The notes under the pieces are model-generated. The model did no database searches and was not told the origin of the DNA. It saw only the letters and a list, made by a program, of their open reading frames with translations. From contig JAFYOX010000001.1 in NCBI GenBank assembly GCA_017547755.1, positions 1-62,969 of the forward strand: DNA of 62,969 bases, given 5' to 3'. How positions within the stretch are numbered: position 1 is the first letter of the stretch; each line of letters opens with the position of its first letter. The translations under genes and the position numbers were made by a program. Below are positions 32,306 through 55,518 of this stretch, in pieces. This DNA is from Clostridia bacterium. Lineage in GTDB: Bacteria > Bacillota > Clostridia > Oscillospirales > CAG-272.

Positions 32306-32315
32306 GGTGCAAGTT

Positions 32316-33017: not shown

Positions 33018-33020
33018 GAC

Positions 33021-34367: not shown

Positions 34368-34394
34368 AATTTCAGCAAAGAGAGGTATATTCAA

Positions 34395-34844
34395 ATGATC
34401 ACAGACCACATCCGAAACCGTCATCTCTATGCCGGTCTCGCGCCGGAGATCCGTCTGGCGCTCGACTACTGCGCGAAAATGTACGAAGAAGGCTTCCGCG
34501 AAACCGACGACGCGATCGCGGACAATGTTACCATGAAATGTCATCCGCTGACGACCCGTCCGATATCTGCTATCACATGGGAAGCGCACCACCGTGCGAC
34601 CGACATCCATTTCATCGTGGACGGACGCGAAATCATCGGCTATGCCGACCGGACGAATCTGAAGATCACGCAGGATCAGCCGGAAGACGATTTCATGCTC
34701 CTCGAAGGCGACAAGATCGGCGGTTTTATCACGCTGGAACCCGGTTATTTCATGCTGACATTCCCGGACGACGCACATGCGCCGTGCCTGTCTCCGGAAG
34801 AACCGGTGAACTGCAATAAAGTCGTCGCGAAAATTTTCCTGTAA
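34395..34844 (+). CDS. YhcH/YjgK/YiaL family protein (NanQ-like anomerase)
   Basis: A 149-residue cupin-like protein. EAHHRATDIHFIVDG and PGYFMLTFPDDAHAPC contain the His and Glu residues characteristic of the YhcH (DUF386) family. E. coli NanQ of this family speeds the anomer conversion of N-acetylneuraminate after sialidase action; others act with beta-galactosidase-type enzymes. Its place right after a GH33-type gene fits the former. It is cytoplasmic, with AGAGG before the start. Confidence 0.86.
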   Translation: MITDHIRNRHLYAGLAPEIRLALDYCAKMYEEGFRETDDAIADNVTMKCHPLTTRPISAITWEAHHRATDIHFIVDGREIIGYADRTNLKITQDQPEDDFMLLEGDKIGGFITLEPGYFMLTFPDDAHAPCLSPEEPVNCNKVVAKIFL

Positions 34845-34878
34845 ATCTCCATCCATACCATCTGAAAGGGGAACCCGC

Positions 34879-36012: not shown

Positions 36013-36013
36013 T

Positions 36014-36062
36014 AAAAAATCAGGCAGGAACTTTCCCAAAGAAGTTCCTGCCTGAAACTGTT
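36014..36062. terminator. Bidirectional terminator
   Basis: The 13-bp stem CAGGCAGGAACTT and its complement with an A run on one side, between the convergent esterase and sialidase-fold genes. Confidence 0.85.
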
Positions 36063-37142
36063 TTACAGCTTCCACTTGGTATAAAGAATGGACGGGAAGC
36101 CGTCTTTTTCGTACTGCTGGTAGTAGACGGTGAGGATGGAGCCGTCGGAGAGTTCAACGGAGCAGGGGTAACCGAGGTCGCACGGGCTGGTTTCGCAGAG
36201 GATGTAGTCGTCCGCCCAGGTTTCGCCGTTGTCACGGCTGACGAGCGCGCGTTCGCCGAAGGGTTCGGCACGGCGTCCGTAGACGAGGACGAGTGCGCCG
36301 GAGGAGTGCTTGATGAGGTGCGGAGGAGATCCGCAGACGCCCATCGGCACCATATCCGTCCATGTTCTGCCGCCGTCGTCAGAGATGCTCTGGTACATCG
36401 TGAACCCGTAGGCAACTTCCGGACCTTCCGCGCGGATGATGCCGACCAGTCGTCCGTTGTCCAGTTCAACGACGTGCGGTTCGTGGAAGTTCTTCCAGGA
36501 GGTGCCTTCCGGTGCGGTCAGTTCGCCGAGCTTCGACCAGGTGGTGCCTTCATCCGTGCTGACCCATGTGGAGATCACGTCCGGATTTTCTCTTCCTTCG
36601 GAGAAATGTTCCTTGCCGAGGTAGAGGATCGTTCCGTTTTTCAGAAGGATCGGGCCGTGCGGGGTCGAGATCGGGATCTGTACCGTATCGCCCCAGGTCA
36701 TACCGCCGTCATGGGAGACGCGTACGAACGAACCGCCGTGGCTGAACTTTTCCGGAATGGTGGAGTACATATCGAGCACGCCGCCGGAGCCGCCCCATGC
36801 ACCGCGGATGGCGTCGTTGTAGCGTCCGGTGTAATTTGTGACCGGATGGCAGAACCAGGTCACGAGGATAGTCTTGCCGCCGAGACAGACCACGCCCGCA
36901 TCACGGTCGTCGAGGTAAGTGTCGTTGATGATCATCGGGATCGACCACGTCTTGCCTTCGTCCCAGCTCTTGAAGAGAACGGTCTTGCCGAACGGGCAGA
37001 TGTGGGATACACGGAAGCCGGAACAGACGGCGTACAGCGTGCCTTCGTCATCCTTGCAGACGGACGGCCAGCCGTTGTAGCGGAAGAACGAGTCCGGATT
37101 GTGCCAGATGATCCCATGTTCGTTTTGGTTGCGGATTTCCAT
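36063..37142 (-). CDS. Sialidase-fold (BNR/Asp-box) protein
   Basis: A 359-residue propeller with Asp boxes SWDEGKTWSIP, SHDGGMTWGDT, STDEGTTWSKL, SDDGGRTWTDM and SRDNGETWADD. PHVVELDNGRLVGIIR is the usual interblade strand. It is likely an exo-glycosidase or sialidase relative, but no RIP motif is seen. There is no signal peptide. It has its own promoter and ends at a shared terminator. Confidence 0.78.
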   Translation of the reverse strand: MEIRNQNEHGIIWHNPDSFFRYNGWPSVCKDDEGTLYAVCSGFRVSHICPFGKTVLFKSWDEGKTWSIPMIINDTYLDDRDAGVVCLGGKTILVTWFCHPVTNYTGRYNDAIRGAWGGSGGVLDMYSTIPEKFSHGGSFVRVSHDGGMTWGDTVQIPISTPHGPILLKNGTILYLGKEHFSEGRENPDVISTWVSTDEGTTWSKLGELTAPEGTSWKNFHEPHVVELDNGRLVGIIRAEGPEVAYGFTMYQSISDDGGRTWTDMVPMGVCGSPPHLIKHSSGALVLVYGRRAEPFGERALVSRDNGETWADDYILCETSPCDLGYPCSVELSDGSILTVYYQQYEKDGFPSILYTKWKL

Positions 37143-37177
37143 AGAATAACCTCCCTGCGGAAATTGATGTTATCCCT

Positions 37178-37206
37178 ATTATAGCGTATCGGTTCCGCTT
37201 TGTAAA
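37178..37206 (-). promoter_or_regulatory. Sigma-A promoter for the sialidase-fold gene at 37142
   Basis: TTTACA, 17 bp, TATAAT on minus, immediately below the GH2 terminator. Confidence 0.8.
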
Positions 37207-37215
37207 TGCGGTGAA

Positions 37216-37250
37216 AGAAAAAACTTCCGGAGAAAACTCCGGAAGTTCTG
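37216..37250 (-). terminator. Terminator of the GH2 gene
   Basis: The stem AACTTCCGGAG/CTCCGGAAGTT is followed on minus by TTTTTTC. Confidence 0.88.
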
Positions 37251-37269
37251 TGTTTTATGGGATAAGAAC

Positions 37270-38973
37270 TCAGTCTTCGATTGCAGCCTTGCGGGCGAAG
37301 ATTTCGTGAACGATCGCGGGATCGAACTTCGGCTTGCGTTCGTAGGTGTAAAGACCGTTCTGTTCCTGTTCAACGTCGGTGAGCTGCGTGTAGCAGAACG
37401 CGAAGATGCGGTCGTCGTCGAGCATAACGTCGGTCAGACCCTTCAGACGGGTAAGGAATTCTTCTTCGGTCTTCGGTGCGTTGCCGTAGCCCCAGCCGTC
37501 CTGCTTGTCGGTCCAGCGGATTCCGCCGTATTCGCTTACAAAGAACGGGGTCTTTCCGTCATAGTGCTGACGGTCGCCGATACCGTTGGACATGGTACCG
37601 AAATCGTTGAAATCGGAGAAGTGTTCCGCGAACTTAACGGGATCCTGTTCGTAGTCGTGTACGTCGTAAACGTCGGTCTTGTCTACATGGTAGTTACCGC
37701 TCGTGTCGATGCAGGGACGGGTCGGGTCAGCTGCCTTGGTAGCGTTGTAAACGAGGTTGAGAACGTCGTTGTACTGCTGTCTGCCGCCCATATCCCAGGT
37801 TTCGTTGAAGGGACACCAGCCGACGATGGACGGGTGGTTGAAGTCACGGTCAACTTCTTCGAGCCATTCGGGAAGGATACCATAGATCGCATCCGCATAG
37901 GTGTGGTCGAGACCCCAGTTCGGGAATTCGCCCCATACGATGTAACCCTTCTTGTCTGCGTGGTAGAGGAAGCGTTCTTCGAATACCTTTTCATGGAGAC
38001 GTGCGCCGTTGAAGCCCATTGCCATGGAGAGGTCGATGTCCGCTGCGAGGAATTCATCCGTGGGAGCCGTGTAAACGCCTTCCGGATTGAAGCCCTGGTC
38101 GAGAACGAGTCTCTGGAATACGGACTTGCCGTTGAGGTAGAACTTGTTGTTGCAGTAAGCGATGGAACGGAGACCGAAATAGCTCTTTACAACGTCGTCG
38201 CCGTAGGTGAGAGTGAGGTCATAGAGACCGCCCTTGCCGAGTTCCCAGAGGTGCTTTTCGGTGAGAGCGAGGGTGAGAACTGCCTGACCGCCGCAGGAAG
38301 CAACGGATGCGGTGCCGCAGTCCTTGCCTTCGAAGGTTGCGGAAACGGTAAGAGTGTCTGCACCGCAGAGGTCAGCCATTACGGTGAGAGTGCCTGCTTC
38401 TGCATCGGTGAGATACTTAACCTTTTCGATGTGGGTCTTCGGAACGAATTCCATCCATACGGTCTGCCAGATACCGGTGGTTCTGGTGTAGTCACAGCCG
38501 TGGGAGTAGTACCATTCGGACTGCTTGCCGCGCGGGATGAGACGGTCGCGTTCATCGTCTTCCGCATGGAGGCAGATGGTGTTGGTGCCGGCGTGTACGA
38601 ATTCGGTAACGTCAACCTTGAAGGAAACGTAGCCGCCCTTGTGCTTGCCTGCGCGCTTGCCGTTGATGAACACGGTGGAGAGATAGTCAACCGCGCCGAA
38701 GTGGAGGTAAACGATACCGGAAACCTGTTCTTCGGTCAGTTCAACGGTCTTCTTGTACCATACGGAGGTCATGAAGTCCTTGTCTTCCACACCGGAGAGC
38801 TTGCACTGCGGGCAGAAGGGAACGTTGATCTTCATGCCGAGGGTCTTGTCGTCTTCGTAGAGCTTGCGGGCATAACCGCTGTTGCCGCGGTCGATTTCAA
38901 AGTCCCATTCGCCGTTGAGGTTGATCCATGCCGCACGTTCGAACTGCGGCTTCGGATGTTCGCATCTGTACAT
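37270..38973 (-). CDS. GH2 family glycosidase (beta-galactosidase/beta-glucuronidase-like)
   Basis: A 567-residue GH2 enzyme with sugar-binding jelly roll (about 1-170), immunoglobulin-like domain (about 170-270) and TIM barrel. GWCPFNETWD has the acid/base Glu at about 390, and FFVSEYGGIRW the nucleophile Glu at about 481. It is short for GH2, with no C-terminal extra domains. It splits beta-linked galactosides, glucuronides or mannosides; specificity is not decided by sequence. There is no signal peptide. The start at 38973 follows GAAAGGA, and a promoter with perfect -10 lies at 39025-39053. AAG-rich lysine codons suggest high expression. Confidence 0.9.
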   Translation of the reverse strand: MYRCEHPKPQFERAAWINLNGEWDFEIDRGNSGYARKLYEDDKTLGMKINVPFCPQCKLSGVEDKDFMTSVWYKKTVELTEEQVSGIVYLHFGAVDYLSTVFINGKRAGKHKGGYVSFKVDVTEFVHAGTNTICLHAEDDERDRLIPRGKQSEWYYSHGCDYTRTTGIWQTVWMEFVPKTHIEKVKYLTDAEAGTLTVMADLCGADTLTVSATFEGKDCGTASVASCGGQAVLTLALTEKHLWELGKGGLYDLTLTYGDDVVKSYFGLRSIAYCNNKFYLNGKSVFQRLVLDQGFNPEGVYTAPTDEFLAADIDLSMAMGFNGARLHEKVFEERFLYHADKKGYIVWGEFPNWGLDHTYADAIYGILPEWLEEVDRDFNHPSIVGWCPFNETWDMGGRQQYNDVLNLVYNATKAADPTRPCIDTSGNYHVDKTDVYDVHDYEQDPVKFAEHFSDFNDFGTMSNGIGDRQHYDGKTPFFVSEYGGIRWTDKQDGWGYGNAPKTEEEFLTRLKGLTDVMLDDDRIFAFCYTQLTDVEQEQNGLYTYERKPKFDPAIVHEIFARKAAIED

Positions 38974-39024
38974 AATTTGATGTTTTCCTTTCGGATTCAG
39001 TATTTGCGTAACGCATACCTGTAC

Positions 39025-39053
39025 ATTATACCTTGTTTGCTGGGGATTTTCAA
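39025..39053 (-). promoter_or_regulatory. Sigma-A promoter for the GH2 gene
   Basis: TTGAAA, 17 bp, TATAAT on minus, with a leader of about 45 bases. Confidence 0.8.
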
Positions 39054-39109
39054 TATGATTGTGCATTTTTGTGCAAAAAAAGATATCGGAAGGAAATAAT
39101 TCTACTCTC

Positions 39110-39139
39110 TTGACCAATCCCGAACCCGTATGGTATAAT
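39110..39139 (+). promoter_or_regulatory. Promoter of the nine-gene operon
   Basis: TTGACC, 18 bp, TATAAT. The ATGGTATAAT extension matches those at 9105 and 29237. It is the only clear promoter before the genes from 39176 to 50768. Confidence 0.8.
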
Positions 39140-39175
39140 AAAGCATAATTTTGAGGTGCATGAGGAGATGATTCT

Positions 39176-39934
39176 ATGCAATTTGCCAACAAGACTGCTA
39201 TTTCCACCGGTGCGGCATCCGGAATGGGTCTGCTGTTTGCCCAGTGCTGGGCGTCGGAAGGCGGAAATGTTCTTATGTGCGACGTCAACGAGCCGGTTCT
39301 CATGGAAAAAGTCGCGGAGATCAACGCGAAAGACGGCGGCAGAGCCTGCGGTATCGTCTGCGATGTCCGCGATTACGGACAGGTCTGCGCGGCACGTGAC
39401 CGCGCGGTCGCGGAGTTCGGCAGTATCGACCTGATGGCGAATTTCGCCGGAGGCACGGCGCGCCGTATGCTCGGCGTGGACGGATCTCTCGAATTCCCGG
39501 ACGTTCCGATCGATGTGTATGACTGGGGGATCGATGTGAATCTCAAGGGACCGTTTTATTTTGCCCATGCGGTCATGAAGCAGATGCGCGAGCAGGAAAG
39601 CGGTCTCATCATCAATATCGGCTCCATCACCGGCGCGGAAGGCGACGGTAATGGAACGGATTATCCCACCGCGAAAAGCGCGCTGATGTACGGTCTGACG
39701 AAATCCCTTGCGCAGTACGGCGCGAAATACAACGTCCGCTGTGTCTGCGTTTCTCCCGGACCGGTGCTGACCCGTCCGGCAATGGCAAACATGAAGACCC
39801 TTCTCGGACGTGCCGCCGAGCCGCAGGAGATCATCGATCTGATCCTGTTCATCGCATCGGAAAAGGGGCAGTTCATCAACGGAACGAACATCATGATCGA
39901 CGGCGGCCGCGACGCCATGGGCCGCTGGCACTGA
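39176..39934 (+). CDS. Short-chain dehydrogenase/reductase
   Basis: A 252-residue classical SDR. STGAASGMG is the NAD(P)-binding glycine motif, DVNEPVLME follows with Asp favouring NAD, NIGSITG has the catalytic Ser region and YPTAKSAL the Tyr-Lys pair. It oxidises or reduces a hydroxyl on an imported sugar, cyclitol or related compound. It is the first gene of the nine-gene operon. The ribosome binding site GAGGAG precedes the start. Confidence 0.9.
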   Translation: MQFANKTAISTGAASGMGLLFAQCWASEGGNVLMCDVNEPVLMEKVAEINAKDGGRACGIVCDVRDYGQVCAARDRAVAEFGSIDLMANFAGGTARRMLGVDGSLEFPDVPIDVYDWGIDVNLKGPFYFAHAVMKQMREQESGLIINIGSITGAEGDGNGTDYPTAKSALMYGLTKSLAQYGAKYNVRCVCVSPGPVLTRPAMANMKTLLGRAAEPQEIIDLILFIASEKGQFINGTNIMIDGGRDAMGRWH

Positions 39935-39946
39935 GGGAGGGATATC

Positions 39947-40723
39947 ATGCAGAACCGTCCCACATTTCTCGGGTATTCCGAACCGCTGTACTGCTGTATG
40001 ATCCAGGCACGGACCGCAGAACGTGCGCTCTCTCTGATCCGCCGCGGGCTGGACGGCGGATGTACCGCGTTCGGCTTCCAGCAATGTCAGCTTGAGATGC
40101 AGTACCGCTATGAAACGACGATCCGTTCGCTTTTTGAAGCGATGGAAGGACGTCCCGTGTACGTCACCAACTACCGCGGCGGACGCAATGCCGGGCAGAC
40201 GGACGAAGAAGTTTCCGAAGGACTTGTCACCCTTGCAAAATACGGCGCGACACTCTGCGATGTCATGGGTGATATGTTCTGCCGCCATCCGCAGGAGATG
40301 ACCGACGATCCCGCCGCGATCGAAAAACAGCTCCGGCTGATCGACCGCATCCACGAAGCGGGCGGGGAAGTCCTGATGTCATCGCACATCCTGAAATATA
40401 CCCCGGCGGAAGAAGTTCTCCGCATCGCACTGGAACAGCAGAAACGCGGCGCGGATGTCGTCAAGATCGTGACAGCCGCAGACAGCGAGGCACAGCAGCT
40501 GGAAAATCTGCGGATCACATCCCTGCTGAAGGAAGCACTGGACGTCCCGTATCTCTTCCTGTCGGGCGGATCGCATTACGCGCTCCACCGGATGATCGGT
40601 CCGATGCTCGGCTGCATTATGTATCTCTGCGTCACGGAATACGACGAACTCGCGACAAAGAGTCAGCCGCTTCTGGAAAATGTGCGTGCCGTGCGGCAGC
40701 ATTTTCCCTATCTCTCGAAGTGA
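39947..40723 (+). CDS. Type I 3-dehydroquinate dehydratase-like TIM-barrel protein
   Basis: A 258-residue protein that resembles type I dehydroquinase (AroD). VLMSSHILKYTPAEEVL carries a His at 147 and ADVVKIVT a Lys at 173, the spacing of the His143/Lys170 Schiff-base dyad of the Salmonella enzyme. The later HRMIG and SQP segments are placed like the substrate-binding Arg and Gln. The operon has no other shikimate-pathway gene, so it may dehydrate a quinate-like or sugar-derived ketone rather than make aromatic amino acids. It starts 12 bp after the SDR gene. Confidence 0.72.
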   Translation: MQNRPTFLGYSEPLYCCMIQARTAERALSLIRRGLDGGCTAFGFQQCQLEMQYRYETTIRSLFEAMEGRPVYVTNYRGGRNAGQTDEEVSEGLVTLAKYGATLCDVMGDMFCRHPQEMTDDPAAIEKQLRLIDRIHEAGGEVLMSSHILKYTPAEEVLRIALEQQKRGADVVKIVTAADSEAQQLENLRITSLLKEALDVPYLFLSGGSHYALHRMIGPMLGCIMYLCVTEYDELATKSQPLLENVRAVRQHFPYLSK

Positions 40724-40736
40724 GGTCAATCCGAAC

Positions 40737-41726
40737 ATGAAAGCAATCCTCATACAGAACGATGAAAAACGCTCTCTCGTCTGGTCGGACGTACCCGATC
40801 CGGTCATGGCGGAGGACGAATGTCTGATAAAAATCGAAGCCGCGGGGATCAACCGTGCCGATCTGATGCAGCGCGAAGGAAACTATCCGCCGCCGCCCGG
40901 ATGTCCGGAGTGGATGGGGCTGGAGATTTCCGGAACTGTCGTGCAGGTCGGGACGACTGCGGCACAGGAAGCCGGATGGAAACCGGGCGACAAAGTCTGC
41001 GCGCTTCTCGGAGGCGGCGGATATGCCCGGTATGTCAGCGTACGCTATGATATGCTCATGCCGGTTCCCGCAAACTGCACGATGACCGAAGCCGCCGCTC
41101 TTCCGGAGGCGTTTGCGACCTCGTATCTGAATCTGTTCACGGAAGGAAACATCCGTGCGGGAGATACGCTTCTCGTCACGGCCGGTGCCAGCGGCCTGGC
41201 AAGCGTGATGATCCCGCTTGCGAAATCTTTCGGGATCCGTGTGATCACCACCGTCCGCAAGGACGAACAGGTCGAAAAGATCCGTCCGCTCGGTGCGGAT
41301 GTGATCGTCAATACCCGGACACAGGATCTCGCGGAAGTTCTGAAGGCGGAACTTGACGCCGGACACGGCGTGGATGTCGCCATCGACTGCCTCGGCGGCG
41401 AAACGATGGGACGCTGTCTGCCGTATCTGAACCGCGGTGCCCGCTGGATCATGATCGCATCCCTCGCCGGATCGCTTACGGAAGTGGATCTGAAGAACAT
41501 CTTCGTCCGGAACATCCGGATCATCGGAAGCACCCTCCGTTCCCGCACACCGGAAGTCAAAGCCGCGCTTCTCGCCGATCTGGTGAAGAACGTCTGGCCG
41601 AAGGTGGAAAGCGGTGAAGTCCGTCCGACCATCTGCCGTGTGCTTCCCATTACGGAAGCGGAAGCGGCACAGAATCTGCTCTATCAGGGTCAGAACATCG
41701 GAAAAGTGGTTCTGACCGTCGAATAA
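40737..41726 (+). CDS. Quinone oxidoreductase-like medium-chain dehydrogenase
   Basis: A 329-residue MDR protein of the PIG3/QOR type. AAGINRADLMQREGNYPPP is the family signature, followed by LLVTAGASGLAS as the nucleotide-binding turn. The zinc ligands of alcohol dehydrogenases are absent, so it is a zinc-free NAD(P)H-dependent reductase of quinones or enones. It could reduce the enone made by the dehydratase-like protein just upstream. The ATG at 40737 is preferred; the longer open frame overlaps the previous gene. Confidence 0.88.
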   Translation: MKAILIQNDEKRSLVWSDVPDPVMAEDECLIKIEAAGINRADLMQREGNYPPPPGCPEWMGLEISGTVVQVGTTAAQEAGWKPGDKVCALLGGGGYARYVSVRYDMLMPVPANCTMTEAAALPEAFATSYLNLFTEGNIRAGDTLLVTAGASGLASVMIPLAKSFGIRVITTVRKDEQVEKIRPLGADVIVNTRTQDLAEVLKAELDAGHGVDVAIDCLGGETMGRCLPYLNRGARWIMIASLAGSLTEVDLKNIFVRNIRIIGSTLRSRTPEVKAALLADLVKNVWPKVESGEVRPTICRVLPITEAEAAQNLLYQGQNIGKVVLTVE

Positions 41727-41756
41727 ATATCAAATACATACAAGGAGAACGACATC

Positions 41757-42713
41757 ATGTCCAGCTTGCTTGCACAGGCGATCCGCTACGAACATCCTGC
41801 GACCATTCCGGTCGGAGTCAGCGCACTTCCGGCGGTCTGGCTGAAATACGGCGATGAATTCCAGCGCATTGCGAACGAATATCCGCAGTTTTTCGGAAAT
41901 TTCCAGTACGACCCGCACACCTACCGCTATGCGGATTCCTACCATACCGGCACATTCACCGATGAATGGGGCTGTGTCTGGGAAAATATTCAGGAAGGGA
42001 ACGAATCCATCGTCAAGGGACATCCGGTAAAGTCCGAAGAAGACGTTATGAAGCTTGCGATCCCGGAAGACCGCAGCGGTCGTTTCCCGCACGGCTTCAT
42101 GTACCTCCGTCTGCTCGACCTCTGCGGCTTCGAACTGGCGATGACCATGTTTGCGGAAGAAGATGAAGAGATCCAGACCCTTGTTGACAAGGTTCTCACT
42201 TACAACTGCGCACAGATGGAAGTGATCCTGCCGGGACTCGGCGAAATCGCGTATTTCGGCGATGACCTCGGGATGCAGAAGGGACTTGCCATCGGTCCGC
42301 GCCGCTGGAGAAAATATCTGAAGCCCTGCTACAGCAGACTCTACGGCATGATCAAGGCAAAGAAGCCCGATACGCTCGTCTATATGCACACCGACGGCTG
42401 TATCTGGGAGATCATGCCCGACCTCGCCGAATGCGGCGTGGATATGATCAATCCGCAGATCCGTGCCAACGGTCTCGACAATCTCGTGCGCGTCTGCAGG
42501 GGCAAAATCCCGATCAATCTCGACATGGACCGTCAGCTGTTCCCGTTTGCGACCCCGTCGCAGATTCACGATCACTTCGCGGAATGTGTGGAAGCGCTCT
42601 ATCTGCCGGAAGGCGGTCTCGGTCTGAACGTCGAACTGAACTACGAAATCCCGCTGGAAAATATTGTGGCGATCCTCGATGCGGCAGAAAAATTCCGCCA
42701 TTACAAAGGTTAA
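41757..42713 (+). CDS. Uroporphyrinogen decarboxylase (URO-D) family protein
   Basis: A 318-residue URO-D superfamily TIM barrel. FGDDLGMQKGLAIGP and HTDGCIWEIMPDL are the typical blocks, while true haem-pathway Arg motifs are missing. Members of this group include corrinoid methyltransferases and many unassigned enzymes in sugar-rich operons. No corrinoid protein is next to it. Its role may be lyase- or methyltransferase-like. It lies 30 bp after the reductase gene, with AAGGAG upstream of the start. Confidence 0.8.
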   Translation: MSSLLAQAIRYEHPATIPVGVSALPAVWLKYGDEFQRIANEYPQFFGNFQYDPHTYRYADSYHTGTFTDEWGCVWENIQEGNESIVKGHPVKSEEDVMKLAIPEDRSGRFPHGFMYLRLLDLCGFELAMTMFAEEDEEIQTLVDKVLTYNCAQMEVILPGLGEIAYFGDDLGMQKGLAIGPRRWRKYLKPCYSRLYGMIKAKKPDTLVYMHTDGCIWEIMPDLAECGVDMINPQIRANGLDNLVRVCRGKIPINLDMDRQLFPFATPSQIHDHFAECVEALYLPEGGLGLNVELNYEIPLENIVAILDAAEKFRHYKG

Positions 42714-42746
42714 ATAAGCGGTTCAATTCACAGAAAGGACGCAGAT

Positions 42747-45362
42747 ATGGAACTGAAATTACGTTATGACAAACCGGCTCCGAACACGGAAGAAGGCTGG
42801 GAGCGGTATTCCATGCCGATCGGCAATTCCCATATGGGCGGCAATGTCTTCGGTATCGTAAAGCGCGAACGGATCCAGATCACGGAAAATTCCACGGAAA
42901 ATCCGGGGCATCTCGGCGGTCTGAACAGCTTTGCCGACCTGTATTTCCATTTTCCGCACGAGGACGAGTCCGTCCGGAATTATGAACGCGGTCTTGATAT
43001 CGGACGTGCGCTGGCGTATGTCCGCTACGACGCCGGCGATGTTTCCGTGGAGAGGGAATATTTTGCCTCCTATCCCGACCGTACTGTCGCCGGAAAGATC
43101 CGCACATCCGCACCGGTCACGCTGACCGCGGAAGTGAAGATCCCGTTCCTTACCGAAGAAGAAGGACGTGAAAAGCGCGGCGAAGTCACGGCGGAAGGGA
43201 ATACGATCACCATGACCGGCATCATGTGCGCGTACCGCGTGCGTTTTGCCGCACAGCTTACCGTCCGTACCAACGGTACGGTCACGGCGGAAAACGGCTG
43301 TCTGACCATTGCCGACGCTACGGAAACCGATTTTACATTCTGCGGTGCGACCAACTACGAACTCCGTCCGGAAGTTTTCACCGAACCGGACAACCATAAA
43401 AAACTCCGCGATTTCGATCCTCTGCCGCTGGCGGAATCGATCACAGCCGCGGCGCAGGCGTATTCCTATGACGATCTGCGTGTCCGTCATATCGAAGACC
43501 ACAGTGCACTTTTCGGACGTGTCTCTCTTGAATTCGGGGAAACCGAAGTGCCGGACCTCATGACGGACAAGCTTCTCGAAAACTATTCCGCAGGGGAACA
43601 GAGCCGCTATCTCGAAGTGCTGTACTTCCAGTTCGGACGGTATCTCCTGATCGCTTCGTCCCGTCCGGGATGCCTTCCCGCCAATCTGCAGGGCGTCTGG
43701 AACTGCCACGACCGCTCCCCGTGGGGCAGCGGCTACTGGCACAACATCAACGTCCAGATGAACTACTGGCCGGCATTCGTCACTGGACTCGGCGAAACCT
43801 TTGACGCATATCTCAAATTCTATCTCGCGTTCCTGCCGCAGGCGGAAAAATTCGCGTCCGAATACATCCGGAACACCGTTCCCGAAAACGCGTCCGATGT
43901 TCCCGGAGAATGCGGCTGGACGATCGGTACGGGCAGCTATGCCTATATGATCAGCGGACCCGGCGGACATTCCGGTCCCGGTACCGGCGGTCTGACCTCC
44001 AAGCTGTTCTGGGAATACTACGCATTCACCGGCGATAAGAACGTTTTACGCAATATCACCTATCCCGCGCTTCTTGCGATGGCGAAATTCCTCTGCAAAG
44101 TGGTGCGCGACTACGACGGAAAATACCTCTCCGTCTTCTCCGCGTCTCCGGAACAGATTCTGTCGAATCAGTGGGGACAGTATGTCCAGTATTACCACAC
44201 GGTCGGCTGTGCGTTTGACCAGCAGATGATCTGGGAAAATGCTGCGGATCTTCTGAAATGCGTGGAACTTCTCGGCGAAGATACCCTTCCGGAGGAAGAC
44301 CTTCCCGTGATCCGCAAGGTGCGCGAACAGATCGGACGTTACGATCCCGTACAGGTCGGCTGGAGCGGTCAGATCAAGGAATACCGCGAGGAACATTTCT
44401 ACGGTGAGATCGGCGAATTCCGTCACCGTCACATCTCCCAGCTCGTCGGTCTGTATCCCGGCACGTCCATTTCCGGCGAAACACCCGCATGGCTCGACGC
44501 CGCAAAGCGTTCCCTCGACCTCCGTTCGGACGAATCCACCGGATGGGCTCTGGCACACCGTCTGAATACCTGGGCACGTACCGGCGACGGCAACCGTGCG
44601 CATAAACTGTACGCCAACCTCCTCGGACAGCGTACGCTGCCGAATCTCTGGGATACACATCCGCCGTTCCAGATCGACGGCAATTTCGGCGGTGCGTCCG
44701 GGGTTGCGGAAATGCTGATTCAGAGCCATGAAACCTATATCCGTCCTCTGCCGTCCCTTCCGGATGCGTGGGCAGACGGTTCCTATACCGGTCTCGCGGC
44801 ACGCGGCGGCTTCACGATCGATGCCGCATGGAAAAACGGATGTGCGGAAACGATCACCGTGCATTCCGTATCCGGCGGTGAATGCCGGATCGAATATCCC
44901 GGCATTGCGGACGGTGTCCTTCCGATGGAAGCCGCAGTCATTGACCGCGATCATATCGTGATCCCGACGGAATCCGGCAGATCCTATACGATCAGCGCCA
45001 TTCCCGCACAGCCGAAGAAGCCCGTCCCGACCGAACTTCACGCCAACCGTTCCGGCGTGCTGACATGGACGTTCGGAGAAGCGGTCGATATCTGGCGTGC
45101 CGCAGACAGTTCGCCGGTCTACGAAAAGATCGCGCAGAACGTCGCCGACAACATCTATACCGACGTTACCCGCACCTTCGACCGTGCGGAAACCGTTACC
45201 TACAAGATCACCCGCGCGGATGCCGGCAGTTCTTCCGCACCCGGTGCCTGCGTCACGCTCAACCATTCCACGGAAATCGAACGTATGCGTTACCGCTACT
45301 GGGTACGTCAGGTGAATATGCCCTGCGGCGGTGCCAAGATTCCGGATTATCTGGGGGAATAA
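42747..45362 (+). CDS. GH95 alpha-L-fucosidase/galactosidase
   Basis: An 871-residue enzyme with an N-terminal super-sandwich and an (alpha/alpha)6 catalytic barrel. HNINVQMNYW holds the two Asn (about 333 and 335) that activate water in the family, KEYREEHF the acid Glu near 544, and FQIDGNFGG the Asp near 643. It inverts at alpha-1,2-linked L-fucose or L-galactose. The C-terminal 120 residues form an extra Ig-like domain. No signal peptide is present, whereas many GH95 enzymes are exported. It is the fifth gene of the operon. Confidence 0.9.
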   Translation: MELKLRYDKPAPNTEEGWERYSMPIGNSHMGGNVFGIVKRERIQITENSTENPGHLGGLNSFADLYFHFPHEDESVRNYERGLDIGRALAYVRYDAGDVSVEREYFASYPDRTVAGKIRTSAPVTLTAEVKIPFLTEEEGREKRGEVTAEGNTITMTGIMCAYRVRFAAQLTVRTNGTVTAENGCLTIADATETDFTFCGATNYELRPEVFTEPDNHKKLRDFDPLPLAESITAAAQAYSYDDLRVRHIEDHSALFGRVSLEFGETEVPDLMTDKLLENYSAGEQSRYLEVLYFQFGRYLLIASSRPGCLPANLQGVWNCHDRSPWGSGYWHNINVQMNYWPAFVTGLGETFDAYLKFYLAFLPQAEKFASEYIRNTVPENASDVPGECGWTIGTGSYAYMISGPGGHSGPGTGGLTSKLFWEYYAFTGDKNVLRNITYPALLAMAKFLCKVVRDYDGKYLSVFSASPEQILSNQWGQYVQYYHTVGCAFDQQMIWENAADLLKCVELLGEDTLPEEDLPVIRKVREQIGRYDPVQVGWSGQIKEYREEHFYGEIGEFRHRHISQLVGLYPGTSISGETPAWLDAAKRSLDLRSDESTGWALAHRLNTWARTGDGNRAHKLYANLLGQRTLPNLWDTHPPFQIDGNFGGASGVAEMLIQSHETYIRPLPSLPDAWADGSYTGLAARGGFTIDAAWKNGCAETITVHSVSGGECRIEYPGIADGVLPMEAAVIDRDHIVIPTESGRSYTISAIPAQPKKPVPTELHANRSGVLTWTFGEAVDIWRAADSSPVYEKIAQNVADNIYTDVTRTFDRAETVTYKITRADAGSSSAPGACVTLNHSTEIERMRYRYWVRQVNMPCGGAKIPDYLGE

Positions 45363-45365
45363 GCC

Positions 45366-46082
45366 ATGGATTATAATTATACCGGAAAAGTCGTCGTCAT
45401 CACCGGCGCATCCCACGGGATCGGCCTGTGTACCGCGGAGGAATTCGCACGCCGCGGTGCGCAGGTCTGTACGATCGATGTAAACGGCGATCCGTATTTC
45501 AAAGGCGACATCGCCGACAAAGCGGTTCTGGAAGCCTTTGCGGACAAAGTGATCGCGGATCACGGGCACGTGGATATCCTCATCAACAACGCTCCGCCGC
45601 TGTCCCGCGGCATTTCATCCGCATCGTACGAGGATTTTCTGTACGCCATGCAGGTCGGCGTGACCGCGCCGTTCTATCTGGCGAAGCTGTTCCAGCCGCA
45701 TTTCGCGGAAAAAGCGTCCATTATCAACATTTCGTCCTCCCGTGACCGGATGAGTCAGCCGGAAACCGAAACCTATACCGCAGCCAAAGGCGGTATTGCC
45801 GCACTGACCCACGCGCTGGCTGTCAGCCTTTCCGGAAAAGTCCGTGTCAATTCGATCTCGCCCGGATGGATCGACACCGGCGGAAACACCTACGATGGTC
45901 CCGACGCCGTACAGCAGCCTGCCGGACGGGTCGGCAATCCGATGGACATCGCGTCCATGATCCTGTTCCTCTGCTCGGAACAGGCGGGCTTCATCACCGG
46001 GGAAAACATCTGCATCGACGGCGGAATGACCCGTCTGATGATCTCTCACGGCGACCACGGCTGGACGCTGAACGAAAACTGA
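45366..46082 (+). CDS. Short-chain dehydrogenase/reductase
   Basis: A 238-residue SDR. ITGASHGIGLC is the cofactor loop, LINNAPPLS replaces the usual NNAG, INISSSRDR has the catalytic Ser and YTAAKGG the Tyr-Lys. It starts 3 bp after the GH95 stop, so translation is coupled. It could oxidise fucose or another released sugar (L-fucose dehydrogenases are often SDRs). Confidence 0.88.
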   Translation: MDYNYTGKVVVITGASHGIGLCTAEEFARRGAQVCTIDVNGDPYFKGDIADKAVLEAFADKVIADHGHVDILINNAPPLSRGISSASYEDFLYAMQVGVTAPFYLAKLFQPHFAEKASIINISSSRDRMSQPETETYTAAKGGIAALTHALAVSLSGKVRVNSISPGWIDTGGNTYDGPDAVQQPAGRVGNPMDIASMILFLCSEQAGFITGENICIDGGMTRLMISHGDHGWTLNEN

Positions 46083-46127
46083 CGAACGATACTTCAGAAT
46101 TCAGAACAACAGAATGGAGGAAGTTTC

Positions 46128-48035
46128 ATGTATACGATCCATAAAATCCGCGCCGATCACGTGATCGATTTTGCGGCGGAGGAACTCAAAAAATATCTGC
46201 GCATGATGATGCCCGCCTGCGGTGACATCGCGATCTCCTATCAGCCGGATGCCGCGGACGGATTCCGTCTCGGTCTGCTGGAAGATTTCGGTCTGGATAC
46301 GTCGGACGTGGAAGAACCCGTCCTCGATGACGTTGTGCAGATCATCGCCGATGAAAACGGCGGCATTCTTGCCGGAAGCAATCCGCGCAGCGTTCTGTTT
46401 GCCGTCTACCGCTATCTGAAGGAAAACGGCTGCCGCTGGCTCTTTCCCGGCGTAGACGGGGAATATATCCCGATCCGTAAGGTTCAGCCGGTGAACTACC
46501 GCCACAAGGCATCGCACCGCTTCCGCGGACACTGCAACGAAGGTGCGGAATTCCAGCAGAGCATGCTCGAAACCATCGACTATTTTGCAAAGCTCGAGAT
46601 GAACGTCTATATGCTCGAGTTTGACATTCCGTTTACCTACTACAACACCTACTATATGCACAGCTACAACGAGGACAACCGTCCGCCGGAACCGATCACG
46701 CCCGAAACGGTCCTGCAGTGGAAGCGCCAGTGCGAAGCGGAAATTGCCAAGCGCGGTCTGCAGTTCCATGATATGGGTCACGGCTGGACGGCGGAACCGT
46801 TCGGTATCTCCTCGACCGCCGGATGGGCGGCATCCACGCAGGAGATTCCCGCAGAAGTCAAGGAATTCCTTGCGGTGACCGACGGGGAACGCAAACTCTG
46901 GGGCGGCGTTCCGCTGAACACGAACCTCTGCATGTCGAAGCCGGAAGTCCGTACGACGATGGCGCAGGCGATCGCGGATTATGCGGAAAATCACCAGAAT
47001 GTTTCCTATATTCACGTATGGCTGGCGGACGGCGCCCGCAACCACTGTGAATGCGAAGAATGCCGGAAACTCCGTCCGTCCGACTACTACATCATGATCA
47101 TGAACGAACTGGACGAAGAACTGACCCGCCGGAATCTTGCTTCCAAGATCGTTTTCATCGCTTACGTTGACACCCTGTTCGCACCGCGGCAGGAAAAGAT
47201 CAGAAATCCCGGACGGTTCGCACTTCTGTATGCACCGATCCAGCGTTCCTATACCAGCAGCATCGACATGGACAAGATCACCGAGCCGCCGGAATACGAA
47301 CGCAACCGCTGGGAAACCCCGGTTTCTTCCGAAGCCAACGCGGCGTTCCTGCTCGACTGGCAGAAAGACTGGCACGGTCCTTGCTTCACGTACGAATATC
47401 ATTTCTGGCGTCATATGTGCTACGATCCCGGTCTGATGACCATCAGCCGCCGGATCTACGAAGACATCCTCGCTTACCGCAAGGTCGGTCTGGACGGCAT
47501 CGTCGAGGACGGCACCCAGCGCTGCTTCTTCCCGAACGGCATTGCACTTTACGTCTATGCGGCGGCTCTTCTCGACTGTGACTGCGATTATGACGCCGTT
47601 GTGGACGATTACTTCCGCCACTGCTACGGTGAAAACTGGCAGGCGGTGAAGGATTACTTCAGCCGCATCAGTGAAGCGTTCGATTTTGCTTATCTGGAAG
47701 GCGAACGTTCCGTCGATTACAGCAGAAACAGCTTCTACAACCCCGATCATGCGGAAGTTCTGAAGACCGTTCCGGCGATTGCCGCCGAAGGACGAGCGAT
47801 CGCCGAAGAAAACAGTCGTCTTCCGGTGCGCGTGCAGTCCGTAGCGATGCGGCTTCTCCTGCGTCACGCGGAATACAGCGAACGCCTTGCGGAAGTGATG
47901 GCAGTCAAGGCGGCAGGCGGTGACGAACAGGCACACGAACTCTGGGATTCTTTCCGTCACGATTTCGGCAAATACGAATTCGAACTCGAACGCTACTTTG
48001 ACCATGCGCAGACCCTGCGCTCTCTGCGGATGTAA
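46128..48035 (+). CDS. DUF4838 domain-containing protein
   Basis: A 635-residue protein. An N-terminal alpha-glucuronidase-like domain (about 1-120) is followed by a TIM-barrel DUF4838 with the conserved CECEECRKL motif, probably metal-binding, at about 306-314. DUF4838 proteins are found in glycan-degradation clusters and are suspected glycosidases, but I know of no firm substrate. No signal peptide is present. It lies 45 bp after the SDR gene. Confidence 0.82.
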   Translation: MYTIHKIRADHVIDFAAEELKKYLRMMMPACGDIAISYQPDAADGFRLGLLEDFGLDTSDVEEPVLDDVVQIIADENGGILAGSNPRSVLFAVYRYLKENGCRWLFPGVDGEYIPIRKVQPVNYRHKASHRFRGHCNEGAEFQQSMLETIDYFAKLEMNVYMLEFDIPFTYYNTYYMHSYNEDNRPPEPITPETVLQWKRQCEAEIAKRGLQFHDMGHGWTAEPFGISSTAGWAASTQEIPAEVKEFLAVTDGERKLWGGVPLNTNLCMSKPEVRTTMAQAIADYAENHQNVSYIHVWLADGARNHCECEECRKLRPSDYYIMIMNELDEELTRRNLASKIVFIAYVDTLFAPRQEKIRNPGRFALLYAPIQRSYTSSIDMDKITEPPEYERNRWETPVSSEANAAFLLDWQKDWHGPCFTYEYHFWRHMCYDPGLMTISRRIYEDILAYRKVGLDGIVEDGTQRCFFPNGIALYVYAAALLDCDCDYDAVVDDYFRHCYGENWQAVKDYFSRISEAFDFAYLEGERSVDYSRNSFYNPDHAEVLKTVPAIAAEGRAIAEENSRLPVRVQSVAMRLLLRHAEYSERLAEVMAVKAAGGDEQAHELWDSFRHDFGKYEFELERYFDHAQTLRSLRM

Positions 48036-48048
48036 CGGAGGAACGAGC

Positions 48049-49347
48049 ATGAAAGCTGCGTTTTACGAACGGGAAATCACCCCGCCGCTCGGTGAATCCA
48101 TGCCCGGCTATTATGCCGTACGGATCGCGGACGATGTGGCGGACAAACTGTATGCCAAGGTCTTCGCCGCCGAAAACGACGGCGTGAAAATCGCGCTTCT
48201 CGTTCTCGACTGCGTGGAACTGCCGACCAAATACGCGGACGCCATCGTAGCCCGCGTGCGGCAGTATAATGAAGATATTCCCGCGGACAATATCGCTGTC
48301 TGTGCGACGCATTCCCATACGGGGATCCCGTGCGGCGAACCGCTCGTCGGGATGGATGACGAAATATTCATGAACGTTCTCGTCCGTCAGGCGGCGGACT
48401 GCGTGACACTGGCTCTGCGGCGTCTGCAGGAAGTTACGCTGACCTTCGGATGCGGAGAAGTGAACGGCATTTCCTTCAACCGGAATTTCCGTCTCGCGGA
48501 CGGACGCGTCATCACGCATCTCGGCGGTGCCGACCGTGACGGTGCTGTCCCGTATTCGGACATTGATCCGCTTCTTCCCATTCTCACCGTGCGCGATGAA
48601 AACAGACAGCCGGTCGGAGCGGTCATCAGTTACGCCTGCCATCAGGACTGCGTCGGCGGAAAGGCGTACAGCGGCGACTATTCGTCCGAACTTTCGAAAA
48701 AACTCAAGGAACGCTACGGACAGGATTTTGTGTCCGTCTACATTCCCGGCGCATCCGGTGACATCAACCATGTGAACTATATGAATGTTGATACCGGGAT
48801 CGCCGAAGAAGAAGGTGTACCGCATTACCGGACGATGGGGCGCGTGATCGCCGCAGAAGCCGTCCGTGTGATCGATGCGGACAGCCATCCGGTGGAAGGG
48901 AACCGGATCTTCGCGGAAAAGAAAATGCTCGATATACCCGTGCGCCGTGCGACGGCGGAACAGATCGAACAGGCGAAAGCAAAAGTTGCTGTATCCGGTG
49001 AAAAAGCATGGAACGCGAGACTTCTGCTCCACTATGAGGAAGTGCAGACCGAAGTGACTCATCCGACGCCGGTGCAGGTGTTCGGCATCGGCAATACCGC
49101 GATCGCCGCGCTTCCCGGAGAGCCGTATCACCGGTTCGCGGCAAAGATCCGCGAAGGATGTCCGGCGGTGAACTGCCTGTTTTCGGCTCTGTCGAACGGG
49201 ATGCACGGGTATGTACCCGTGCCCGAACTGATGGAAACGGACATTTACGAAGCAAAACTCTGTGAAGGCAGTTTCCTCGACCCTTCTGCCGGCGATGCCA
49301 TCGCGGAAGCTGTTATCCGGATGCTTGATGGAAGGAGACTGCAATGA
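48049..49347 (+). CDS. Neutral/alkaline ceramidase-like protein
   Basis: A 432-residue protein with the N-terminal neutral-ceramidase fold. The metal-ligand motif THSHTG (about 88-93), SYACHQDC and IPGASGDINH resemble the family motifs. The C-terminal immunoglobulin-like domain of true ceramidases is short or absent, and the protein is cytoplasmic, so the substrate is more likely an amide- or ester-linked sugar compound than ceramide. The start at 48049 follows CGGAGG, and its stop overlaps the next start by four bases (ATGA). Confidence 0.8.
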   Translation: MKAAFYEREITPPLGESMPGYYAVRIADDVADKLYAKVFAAENDGVKIALLVLDCVELPTKYADAIVARVRQYNEDIPADNIAVCATHSHTGIPCGEPLVGMDDEIFMNVLVRQAADCVTLALRRLQEVTLTFGCGEVNGISFNRNFRLADGRVITHLGGADRDGAVPYSDIDPLLPILTVRDENRQPVGAVISYACHQDCVGGKAYSGDYSSELSKKLKERYGQDFVSVYIPGASGDINHVNYMNVDTGIAEEEGVPHYRTMGRVIAAEAVRVIDADSHPVEGNRIFAEKKMLDIPVRRATAEQIEQAKAKVAVSGEKAWNARLLLHYEEVQTEVTHPTPVQVFGIGNTAIAALPGEPYHRFAAKIREGCPAVNCLFSALSNGMHGYVPVPELMETDIYEAKLCEGSFLDPSAGDAIAEAVIRMLDGRRLQ

Positions 49348-50768
49348 ACGACATTCTAAACATTGGTTCCCGGCGCGAAGTATTCTGGGATGACACCATG
49401 CTGGATACCGCAAAAACCACGACCGTATTCCGTCTGCACGAACCCGTACAGCGCGAATGCGTCATCACCCTCGATCAGGACTGGAACGACGGCGACAATG
49501 CCGGCGCGACGTACAACACGGTCCTGCAGGACGGAGATCTGTACCGGATGTATACCCGTACCGGCGGCAGCAATGTCGTGTATTCCGAAAGTACCGACGG
49601 GATCCACTGGGATCACCCGAATCTCGGCATTATGGAACACAACGGTTCGCGCGACAATCCGCTTCTGTTCGACATGAACGATCCTGCACAGCGGTTCGGA
49701 TTTGACGGATTCCGTCCGTTCATCGATGAGAATCCCGACTGTCTGCCGGAAGAACGCTACAAAGCGATGGCGGATGACGGCAATCAGGTCTTCGTATTCG
49801 TCAGCCCGGACGGGATCCGCTGGAAAAACCGCGGACCGCTCAAGATCACCGGACATTTCGACAGTATGAATACCCTGCTGTACAATAAGCAGACCGGCAC
49901 CTATCAGGCGTTCATCCGCGATTTCCATCCGAACGGCGACCCGTCCAACCCGATCTGGACGCGCGACATCCGTTTCACGGAAAGCAACGATATCTATCCG
50001 AAGGGAAAAACGCCGTGGCCGACACCGAAACCGCTCCGCTACGACAGCGGAAGTGACTGGCAGATGTACATCAACGCGATCATGAAATACCCACGTGCCG
50101 ACCATGTTTACGTCGGATTCCCGTCCCGCTATGTCCAGCGCGGCAGGTGGACGCCGAACTACGACGAACTCTGCGGCGCGGAAAGCCGGAGAAAGCGCGT
50201 GGAAACCATGAACGATACCCGCTACGGTCTGGCGATCAGCGATACGCTGTTCATGACCTCGCGCGACGGTCTGAACTGGAAGCGTTATCCCGAAGCGTTC
50301 ATCCGTCCCGGACCGGAGCATCCGACCAACTGGATGTACGGCAGTGTATATTTCGCGAACGGTCTTGTGGTAACGAAATCCGCGCATCCGGGCTGTGACG
50401 ACGAACTGTCCTTTTACTGTGCGGAAAACCGCTGGTCGGACAAGCCGGCGCAGATCTACCGCTACACCATCCGTATGGACGGCTTTGTCTCCCAGTTCGC
50501 GCCGTATCCCGAAGCCAACCTCGTGACCAAACCGTTCATTTTTGAGGGAAGCGACCTGTACGCGAACTTCTCTTCGTCCGCTTACGGTCATCTGAAATTC
50601 AAGCTGACCGACATGGACGGCAATAAAATCGAATCCTGCGAAACCTTCGGTGACAGCATCGACCGGCGTATCCGCTTTGACGGCGATGTTTCTGCATTCG
50701 CCGGAAAACCGGTTGTCCTGTCCGTCAATATGTGCGATGCCGATCTGTATTCGATCATCTTCCGATAA
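49344..50768 (+). CDS. Hypothetical GH43/GH32-like five-bladed propeller protein
   Basis: A 474-residue protein. Repeats such as VLQDGDLYRMYTRTGG, STDGIHWDHP, SPDGIRWKNRG and SRDGLNWKRYP show a propeller built from GH43/GH32-like blades. The C-terminal 90 residues form a beta domain. Similar proteins occur in planctomycete and clostridial glycan clusters without an assigned activity, to my knowledge. It is translationally coupled to the ceramidase-like gene and is the last gene of the operon. Confidence 0.7.
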   Translation: MNDILNIGSRREVFWDDTMLDTAKTTTVFRLHEPVQRECVITLDQDWNDGDNAGATYNTVLQDGDLYRMYTRTGGSNVVYSESTDGIHWDHPNLGIMEHNGSRDNPLLFDMNDPAQRFGFDGFRPFIDENPDCLPEERYKAMADDGNQVFVFVSPDGIRWKNRGPLKITGHFDSMNTLLYNKQTGTYQAFIRDFHPNGDPSNPIWTRDIRFTESNDIYPKGKTPWPTPKPLRYDSGSDWQMYINAIMKYPRADHVYVGFPSRYVQRGRWTPNYDELCGAESRRKRVETMNDTRYGLAISDTLFMTSRDGLNWKRYPEAFIRPGPEHPTNWMYGSVYFANGLVVTKSAHPGCDDELSFYCAENRWSDKPAQIYRYTIRMDGFVSQFAPYPEANLVTKPFIFEGSDLYANFSSSAYGHLKFKLTDMDGNKIESCETFGDSIDRRIRFDGDVSAFAGKPVVLSVNMCDADLYSIIFR

Positions 50769-50774
50769 AACAAG

Positions 50775-50806
50775 AAACCACACCGGATTTCCGGTGTGGT
50801 TTTTCA
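50775..50806. terminator. Bidirectional terminator
   Basis: A 12-bp stem AACCACACCGGA and its complement with T5. It ends the nine-gene operon and the convergent peptidase gene. Confidence 0.9.
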
Positions 50807-55442: not shown

Positions 55443-55518
55443 AGCCAACCTCTTTCTTGAAAATTTTCGTGCATTTCTTCCCCGCATTTCCGACGTTCTG
55501 TGCGGGATTCTTATGAAA

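What the first reader, a model, noticed from the sequence alone, without database searches (positions are those of the whole stretch)
39110..50806. Nine-gene, 11.6-kb operon pairing a dehydroquinase-like dehydratase with GH95, DUF4838 and ceramidase-like enzymes
Sequence shows nine same-strand genes with gaps of 3-45 bp and one 4-bp overlap, one clear promoter and one final terminator. Established families: SDR, type I dehydroquinase-like, zinc-free MDR reductase, URO-D-like, GH95, SDR, DUF4838, neutral-ceramidase-like, propeller. I know of no described pathway with this set. Inference: removal of L-fucose or L-galactose exposes an aglycone or cyclic polyol, which is oxidised (SDR), dehydrated (Schiff-base dehydratase) and reduced (MDR); DUF4838 and the ceramidase-like hydrolase open further linkages. 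This is my leading candidate for an undescribed system.
Basis: partly seen in the sequence, partly recalled or inferred. Interest (0 to 1): 0.85.

Follow-up and report, generated by a model that had tools for sequence, protein, structure and literature searches.

The report
Gut oxidise-eliminate-reduce gene module
A two- to three-gene enzyme set shared by many gut Clostridia, predicted to strip an oxygen group from an acidic ring-shaped compound, here sits at the head of a longer local operon; the nine-gene combination looks like an arrangement of one lineage and not a conserved pathway.

Summary
The nine same-strand genes, short gaps, promoter-like site and terminal hairpin are real. The nine-gene set is not a conserved system. 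Around 80 fetched relatives of the dehydroquinase-like gene (gene 2), gene 1 (SDR) lies within 300 nt in 59 and a PIG3-type MDR like gene 3 lies in 43 of 71 loci long enough. Homologues of genes 4, 5, 6, 7, 8, 9 occur in 1 of 69, 1 of 54, 1 of 50, 1 of 46, 0 of 43 and 0 of 37 long enough loci, only in two sister genomes. Starting instead from gene 1 in 391 genomes of the class, 19 of its 21 close homologues lie within 1.1 kb of a DHQ-like gene. The unit is SDR + DHQ-like, with the MDR as frequent partner. The DHQ-like protein has the type I dehydroquinase fold and keeps its Schiff-base lysine, catalytic histidine and carboxylate arginine, but not the residues for the other hydroxyls. Best reading: oxidation of a carboxylated cyclic polyol, imine-assisted beta-elimination, enone reduction. 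Substrate unproven; quinate-type acids are my first guess. Eight searches of an open-access library listed no description of this gene set.

The parts
39110..39139 (+). sigma-70-like promoter site with extended -10
   Evidence: 11 of 12 consensus matches; consensus only
39176..39934 (+). Gene 1, SDR1 dehydrogenase; catalytic S150, Y163, K167 and D36 (NAD-type); core gene
   Evidence: 19 of 21 close homologues within 1.1 kb of a DHQ-like gene
39947..40723 (+). Gene 2, divergent type I dehydroquinase-like Schiff-base dehydratase/lyase; K173, H147, R215, Q240; core gene
40737..41726 (+). Gene 3, PIG3-family medium-chain reductase, proposed enone reductase; frequent partner, as neighbour or elsewhere in the genome
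41757..42713 (+). Gene 4, URO-D-like protein; accessory, member of an expanded paralogue family
   Evidence: homologue in 1 of 69 long enough loci
42747..45362 (+). Gene 5, GH95 glycoside hydrolase; accessory
   Evidence: 1 of 54 long enough loci
45366..46082 (+). Gene 6, second SDR; accessory
   Evidence: 1 of 50 long enough loci at 50% identity or more
46128..48035 (+). Gene 7, DUF4838 protein; accessory
   Evidence: 1 of 46 long enough loci
48049..49347 (+). Gene 8, neutral-ceramidase-like hydrolase (weak family match); accessory
   Evidence: 0 of 43 long enough loci
49344..50768 (+). Gene 9, protein of unknown family, fold unknown; accessory
   Evidence: 0 of 37 long enough loci
50773..50804 (.). 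strong hairpin, likely terminator between convergent genes

Best explanation
Genes 1-3 are a dedicated, portable catabolic module of Clostridia, many of them from herbivore guts. Proposed steps: SDR1 oxidises a ring hydroxyl of a small cyclic polyol acid with NAD+ (inferred); the dehydroquinase-like enzyme forms an imine through K173 with that ketone, H147 takes the alpha proton, and the beta C-O bond on the carboxylate-bearing carbon breaks (inferred from conserved residues and fold); the PIG3-type MDR reduces the resulting enone (inferred). Net effect: removal of one oxygen substituent, as in a reductive dehydroxylation of quinate-like acids. In this genome the module stands in front of a lineage-specific set of genes (4-9), several of them glycan-active, presumably for co-expression. 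Shown: gene arrangement, co-conservation, fold, residues. Not shown: any activity, substrate, or single transcript.
For: Gene 1 homologue (50% identity or more) within 300 nt of gene 2 in 59 of 80 loci, gene 3 in 29 of 80; genes 4-9 anywhere in the locus in 1 of 69, 1 of 54, 1 of 50, 1 of 46, 0 of 43, 0 of 37 loci long enough to show them. Independent of the gene 2 bait: 21 close SDR1 homologues in 19 of 391 genomes, 17 within 40 nt and 19 within 1.1 kb of a DHQ-like gene, one 61 nt from a contig end, one unlinked. Close MDR homologue in 23 of 26 genomes with a strong DHQ-like match against 11 of 365 others (relatedness not corrected). AlphaFold model pLDDT 96.6; the 50 PDB matches listed (of 448 at E <= 0.001) are type I dehydroquinases or plant and fungal proteins that contain one, TM 0.67-0.81. 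K173, H147 and R215 invariant in 62 aligned proteins, Q240 in 57; they align with E. coli AroD K170, H143, R213, Q236 (roles of those residues recalled). Type II dehydroquinase in the same genome and in 53 of 59 genomes searched, own included, so biosynthesis is covered there. MDR passes the PIG3 family cut-off.
Against: No substrate or activity evidence. AroD residues that touch the other ring hydroxyls (E46, R48, R82, E86; roles recalled) are not kept at the aligned positions, so 3-dehydroquinate itself may not be the substrate. Only 7 of 45 close MDR homologues lie within 300 nt of a DHQ-like gene, 20 of 45 within 7 kb. Eleven of the 30 DHQ-like places tested lack SDR1 nearby, two of them pieces of a broken gene. 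Genome G074 (98% complete) has DHQ-like genes but no type II match. No transporter belongs to the core. Q240 shifts register in a second alignment. Distance correlation: SDR1-DHQ rho 0.50 (2 of 999 permutations reach it), but SDR1-MDR 0.26 (79) and DHQ-MDR 0.14 (180).
Confidence: 0.5

Rival explanations
1. Oxidation-assisted cleavage of glycosides: SDR1 (or the Gfo/Idh enzyme of variant cassettes) makes a keto-glycoside, the DHQ-like lyase eliminates the aglycone, for example from ulosonic acids whose glycosidic carbon carries the carboxylate (4-keto-sialoside type), and reductases restore the sugar.
For: Oxidation-elimination routes are established: levoglucosan (PMC7676230, abstract), 3-keto O- and C-glucosides (PMC10628242, abstract), 2,7-anhydro-Neu5Ac through a 4-keto intermediate (PMC7535918, passages). 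Gfo/Idh genes sit in variant cassettes. Glycosidase-family proteins were seen near several modules: GH29 in L064, a different DUF4838 protein in L035, GH20-like in L040, GH92 in L055, and a GH2 and a GH29 protein near the window module.
Against: No Gfo/Idh among the nine genes or the ten other window genes scanned. The eliminases of PMC10628242 have an Mn2+ site and RgNanOx is an NAD oxidoreductase; neither is a Schiff-base barrel. The glycosidase neighbours differ from locus to locus, and some cassettes lie between what look by eye like housekeeping genes. A C=C reductase is not needed for a hydrolysis-like outcome. How often glycosidases would lie near by chance in these genomes was not measured.
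Confidence: 0.22
2. The DHQ-like protein is a Schiff-base aldolase that splits a C-C bond of an oxidised sugar acid; SDR1 and MDR handle the fragments.
For: Barrel fold with an active-site lysine, as in class I aldolases (recalled); the specificity side of the pocket is rewritten.
Against: The His-Lys pair and the carboxylate arginine of dehydroquinases are invariant, and the 50 structural matches listed are dehydroquinases.
Confidence: 0.1
3. One reading: a nine-gene pathway in which GH95, DUF4838 and the ceramidase-like enzyme release the substrate of genes 1-3.
For: Tight spacing of all nine genes. Two sister genomes keep parts: G004 has SDR1, a solute-binding-protein-like gene, DHQ, GH95, SDR6, DUF4838; G013 has genes 1-4 at the end of one contig and genes 5-9 in order, with extra sequence between 5, 6 and 7, on another. 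L035 has another DUF4838 protein upstream of SDR1.
Against: Homologues of genes 4-9 in 0 or 1 of the loci long enough to show them; close homologues of genes 4, 7 and 9 outside the sisters lie apart from the module in the other stretches fetched.
Confidence: 0.12

Closest known systems
Type I 3-dehydroquinate dehydratase (AroD, PF01487)
   Same: Fold, Schiff-base lysine, catalytic histidine, carboxylate-binding arginine and, in most members, glutamine
   Different: 15-20% identity to the solved structures listed; aroD equivalog cut-off missed; E46, R48, R82, E86 not kept; neighbours are redox genes; a type II enzyme is present in the genome
Quinate/shikimate gene neighbourhood of E. coli (ydiB-aroD)
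   Same: A dehydrogenase gene next to a type I dehydroquinase gene
   Different: SDR in place of the YdiB-type dehydrogenase; an enone-reductase family gene is added
Levoglucosan pathway LgdA-B1-B2-C (PMC7676230, abstract)
   Same: Oxidise, beta-eliminate, then redox step, by neighbouring genes
   Different: The published route ends with hydration and reduction to glucose; here a Schiff-base barrel and a C=C reductase are proposed
3-keto-glycoside beta-eliminases OGE/CGE (PMC10628242, abstract)
   Same: Elimination next to an enzymatically made ketone, also in a human intestinal bacterium
   Different: Mn2+ active site
RgNanOx (PMC7535918, passages)
   Same: A ketone beta to a carboxylate-bearing carbon triggers elimination
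   Different: One NAD oxidoreductase carries out all steps

Membership tests
Type I 3-dehydroquinate dehydratase (AroD) | Type I dehydroquinase barrel fold | tested here: met
   pLDDT 96.6 model; 50 listed PDB matches, TM 0.67-0.81
Type I 3-dehydroquinate dehydratase (AroD) | Schiff-base Lys170 and catalytic His143 | tested here: met
   K173 and H147 in 62 of 62
Type I 3-dehydroquinate dehydratase (AroD) | Arg213 and Gln236 at the carboxylate | tested here: met
   R215 62 of 62, Q240 57 of 62; Q240 register differs
Type I 3-dehydroquinate dehydratase (AroD) | Glu46, Arg48, Arg82, Glu86 | tested here: not met
   aligned residues T40, F42, Y76, R80 in the window protein; the neighbouring R77 is invariant, so the register is uncertain by one
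Type I 3-dehydroquinate dehydratase (AroD) | NCBIfam aroD equivalog cut-off | tested here: not met
   43.2 against 139.3 bits
Type I 3-dehydroquinate dehydratase (AroD) | Converts 3-dehydroquinate | not testable with these tools
   needs an assay
PIG3 quinone oxidoreductase family | TIGR02824 cut-off | tested here: met
   363.9 against 296.8 bits
Classical SDR | Ser-Tyr-Lys triad and GxxxGxG | tested here: met
   GAASGMG at 12-18; S150, Y163, K167 at least 95% conserved among 56 rows
Keto-glycoside beta-elimination pathway | Gfo/Idh 3-dehydrogenase beside the eliminase | tested here: not met
   no such family among the nine genes; Gfo/Idh only in variant cassettes of other genomes
Conserved nine-gene operon | All nine families kept together in other genomes | tested here: not met
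   in none of the 80 loci; 37 of these reach far enough downstream to show gene 9

The most novel reading that the evidence does not exclude
The module and its variants (DHQ-like subfamilies A-D with their own reductases, three adjacent cassettes in L134) are the unknown enzymes by which gut Clostridia of herbivores remove ring hydroxyls one after another from quinate and shikimate, giving hydroxylated cyclohexanecarboxylates that feed host benzoate and hippurate formation.
Probability: 0.17. Interest if true: 0.85.

Novelty: new variant of a known kind. Interest (0 to 1): 0.6.

Why it matters
It separates a widespread, uncharacterised redox-lyase module from a local operon, gives a divergent dehydroquinase family with a testable mechanism, and names a carrier whose record title gives a strain (Neglectibacter timonensis SN17, L092). 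If the substrate is a quinate-type acid, it would supply genes for a conversion known from its products (hippurate from quinic and shikimic acid, listed as microbial metabolism in PMC9960799, passages); the searches named in this report listed no genes for it.

Tried and rejected
Nine-gene conserved system: rejected by co-occurrence. A first count used only genes within 300 nt of gene 2; that is unfair to genes 4-9, which lie further off even in the window, so recounts them anywhere in each locus against the loci long enough to show them. Biosynthetic dehydroquinase: rejected for this genome, type II present. Gene 9 fold: model failed, no fold search made. VIA-align library absent. Literature: eight answered searches, of which I saw the listings of titles and starts of abstracts; none of those listed describes this gene set. 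Subscription journals and preprints are not in that library. PMC10628242 and PMC7676230 were seen as outline and abstract; PMC7535918, PMC7230068 and PMC9960799 as passages; PMC7230068 added nothing used here. Glycosidase neighbours as a substrate clue: variable; only about 25 neighbour proteins of relatives were scanned and no background rate was computed. The 80 loci are the best 80 of 136 found. The operon-run listing covers 75 of 80 loci, because the gene caller lost gene 2 in five; the tblastn counts cover all 80. Of the 80 loci, 59 went into alignment A3 with the window and two loci; L086 was dropped for an in-frame stop and L078 with it, the other 19 only to save space.
Full report
Observation. 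All nine ORFs are present on the + strand, closely packed (gaps 12, 13, 30, 33, 3, 45, 13, -4 nt with the starts argued), after a promoter-like site and before a strong hairpin. Gene 9 matches no Pfam or NCBIfam model and its fold is unknown.

Which genes belong together. I used gene 2 as bait. It has a match in 13 of 98 genomes of the relatives set, own genome included, two of them weak. A scan of one genome per GTDB species with an 11-sequence alignment found 136 relatives; the best 80 were fetched. Their record titles name Clostridia, Clostridiales, Oscillospiraceae, Lachnospiraceae, Ruminococcus, Firmicutes and the like, and many name goat, roe deer, sheep, cattle, water buffalo, yak, water deer or horse gut samples. 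tblastn of the nine window proteins against these 80 loci: gene 1 at 50% identity or more lies within 300 nt of gene 2 in 59 of 80, and in 57 of the 76 with at least 900 nt upstream; gene 3 at 50% or more within 300 nt in 29 of 80 and anywhere in 43 of 71 loci long enough. Genes 4-9, at 40% or more (gene 6 at 50%), counted anywhere in the locus against the loci long enough to show them: 1 of 69, 1 of 54, 1 of 50, 1 of 46, 0 of 43, 0 of 37. The hits are L028 (gene 4) and L029 (genes 5, 6, 7), the contigs of two sister genomes. Weaker matches exist: GH95 at 31% in L065, ceramidase-like at 27% in L029 and 24% in L107. Same-strand runs: 54 of 75 contain an SDR-cluster gene directly before gene 2, 18 of 75 also the MDR directly after it; exactly SDR-DHQ in 15 and exactly SDR-DHQ-MDR in 10 (the SDR cluster also holds other SDRs). 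A divergent AraC-type gene starts less than 450 nt upstream in 36 of 75 loci with enough sequence (family); in the window the divergent gene is a GH2 protein instead.

Check from the other side. To avoid the bias of a gene 2 bait, I searched 391 genomes of the class with genes 1 and 3. Gene 1: 21 places in 19 genomes at E <= 1e-70; 17 lie within 40 nt and 19 within 1.1 kb of a DHQ-like gene, one is 61 nt from a contig end, one is unlinked. Conversely 19 of 30 DHQ-like places tested have it. Gene 3 at E <= 1e-100: in 23 of the 26 genomes with a strong DHQ-like match and in 11 of the 365 others, but only 7 of 45 places lie within 300 nt and 20 within 7 kb, so it is a genome-level partner often placed elsewhere. 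Relatedness of the genomes is not corrected for.

Variants. Other cassettes add an ADH_zinc_N-type MDR, a Gfo/Idh oxidoreductase, an epimerase-like protein, a second SDR, a metallo-beta-lactamase-fold protein or an amidohydrolase. L134 carries three adjacent units with two DHQ-like paralogues and duplicate partners. I call four DHQ-like groups A-D; in the alignment the five B, one C and one D sequences keep the lysine, histidine and arginine.

Genes 4-9. G004 has SDR1, a gene of the solute-binding-protein cluster, DHQ, GH95, SDR6 and DUF4838, without MDR and URO-D in between. G013 has genes 1-4 at one contig end and genes 5-9, with extra sequence between 5, 6 and 7, on another contig. In the eleven other stretches fetched around homologues of genes 4, 7 or 9, no match to genes 1-3 was found (several of these contigs are short). 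So these six look like a lineage-specific addition. Against a clean split: unrelated or distant glycan-active proteins also lie near modules elsewhere (a different DUF4838 protein in L035, GH29 in L064, GH20-like in L040, GH92 in L055), and I did not measure how often that would happen by chance.

The DHQ-like enzyme. The model (pLDDT 96.6) matches type I dehydroquinases in the 50 PDB hits listed, at 15-20% identity. Lysine 173, histidine 147 and arginine 215 are invariant in 62 sequences and glutamine 240 is kept in 57; they align with E. coli K170, H143, R213, Q236. E46, R48, R82 and E86 are not kept at the aligned positions. From recalled literature, R213 and Q236 hold the substrate carboxylate and the others serve the remaining hydroxyls or the histidine; hence my inference of a carboxylate-bearing but otherwise different substrate. 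A type II dehydroquinase in the same genome (G000:C62) and in 53 of 59 genomes searched covers biosynthesis; the exception that matters is G074, which has DHQ-like genes and no type II match.

Mechanism. Oxidation by SDR1 (S150, Y163, K167; D36 suggests NAD), imine-assisted elimination, enone reduction by a PIG3-type MDR. This is a chain of inference. Quinate-type acids are the simplest substrates: quinate has the carboxylate and the leaving hydroxyl on one ring carbon and an oxidisable hydroxyl two carbons on. The herbivore-gut sources and the known origin of hippurate from quinic and shikimic acid (PMC9960799, passages) agree with it but do not prove it. Ulosonic glycosides fit the same geometry, with precedent in RgNanOx (PMC7535918, passages).

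Verdict. Real arrangement; boundaries of the conserved unit narrower than reported; general chemistry for genes 1-3 plausible. Not filed as AroD because two tested defining features are not met. New variant of a known kind of oxidise-eliminate module.

Noticed in passing
L134 (G176:C15:13000-32990): Three adjacent cassettes with two DHQ-like paralogues and duplicate MDR, Gfo/Idh, epimerase-like and PIG3 genes, with three AraC-cluster genes between them.
   Followed up: partly
window 41757-42713 and genus genomes: URO-D-like proteins are strongly expanded: 11 matches in the window's genome, and 3-16 in each of the 18 of 25 genus genomes (own included) that have any.
   Followed up: no
window 34879-36012: Glucuronoyl-esterase-like protein (GCE_fung, 146 bits); cluster members also in L028, L029 and L103.
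   Followed up: no
window 32277-39132 and 54150-55487: Surroundings rich in glycan genes: GH2, two BNR-repeat proteins, polysaccharide deacetylase, alpha-L-fucosidase.
   Followed up: no
window plus 19 loci with all three core genes adjacent: The DHQ-like protein diverges faster (mean pairwise identity 0.52) than its SDR (0.67) and MDR (0.70) partners.
   Followed up: partly
L089:11002-17865: A 2287-aa same-strand ORF downstream of a module with no Pfam match; L040 and L090 also have very large ORFs downstream.
   Followed up: no
G149:C53, G109:C190, L086: DHQ-like copies in pieces or with an in-frame stop, perhaps decayed genes or assembly errors.
   Followed up: no
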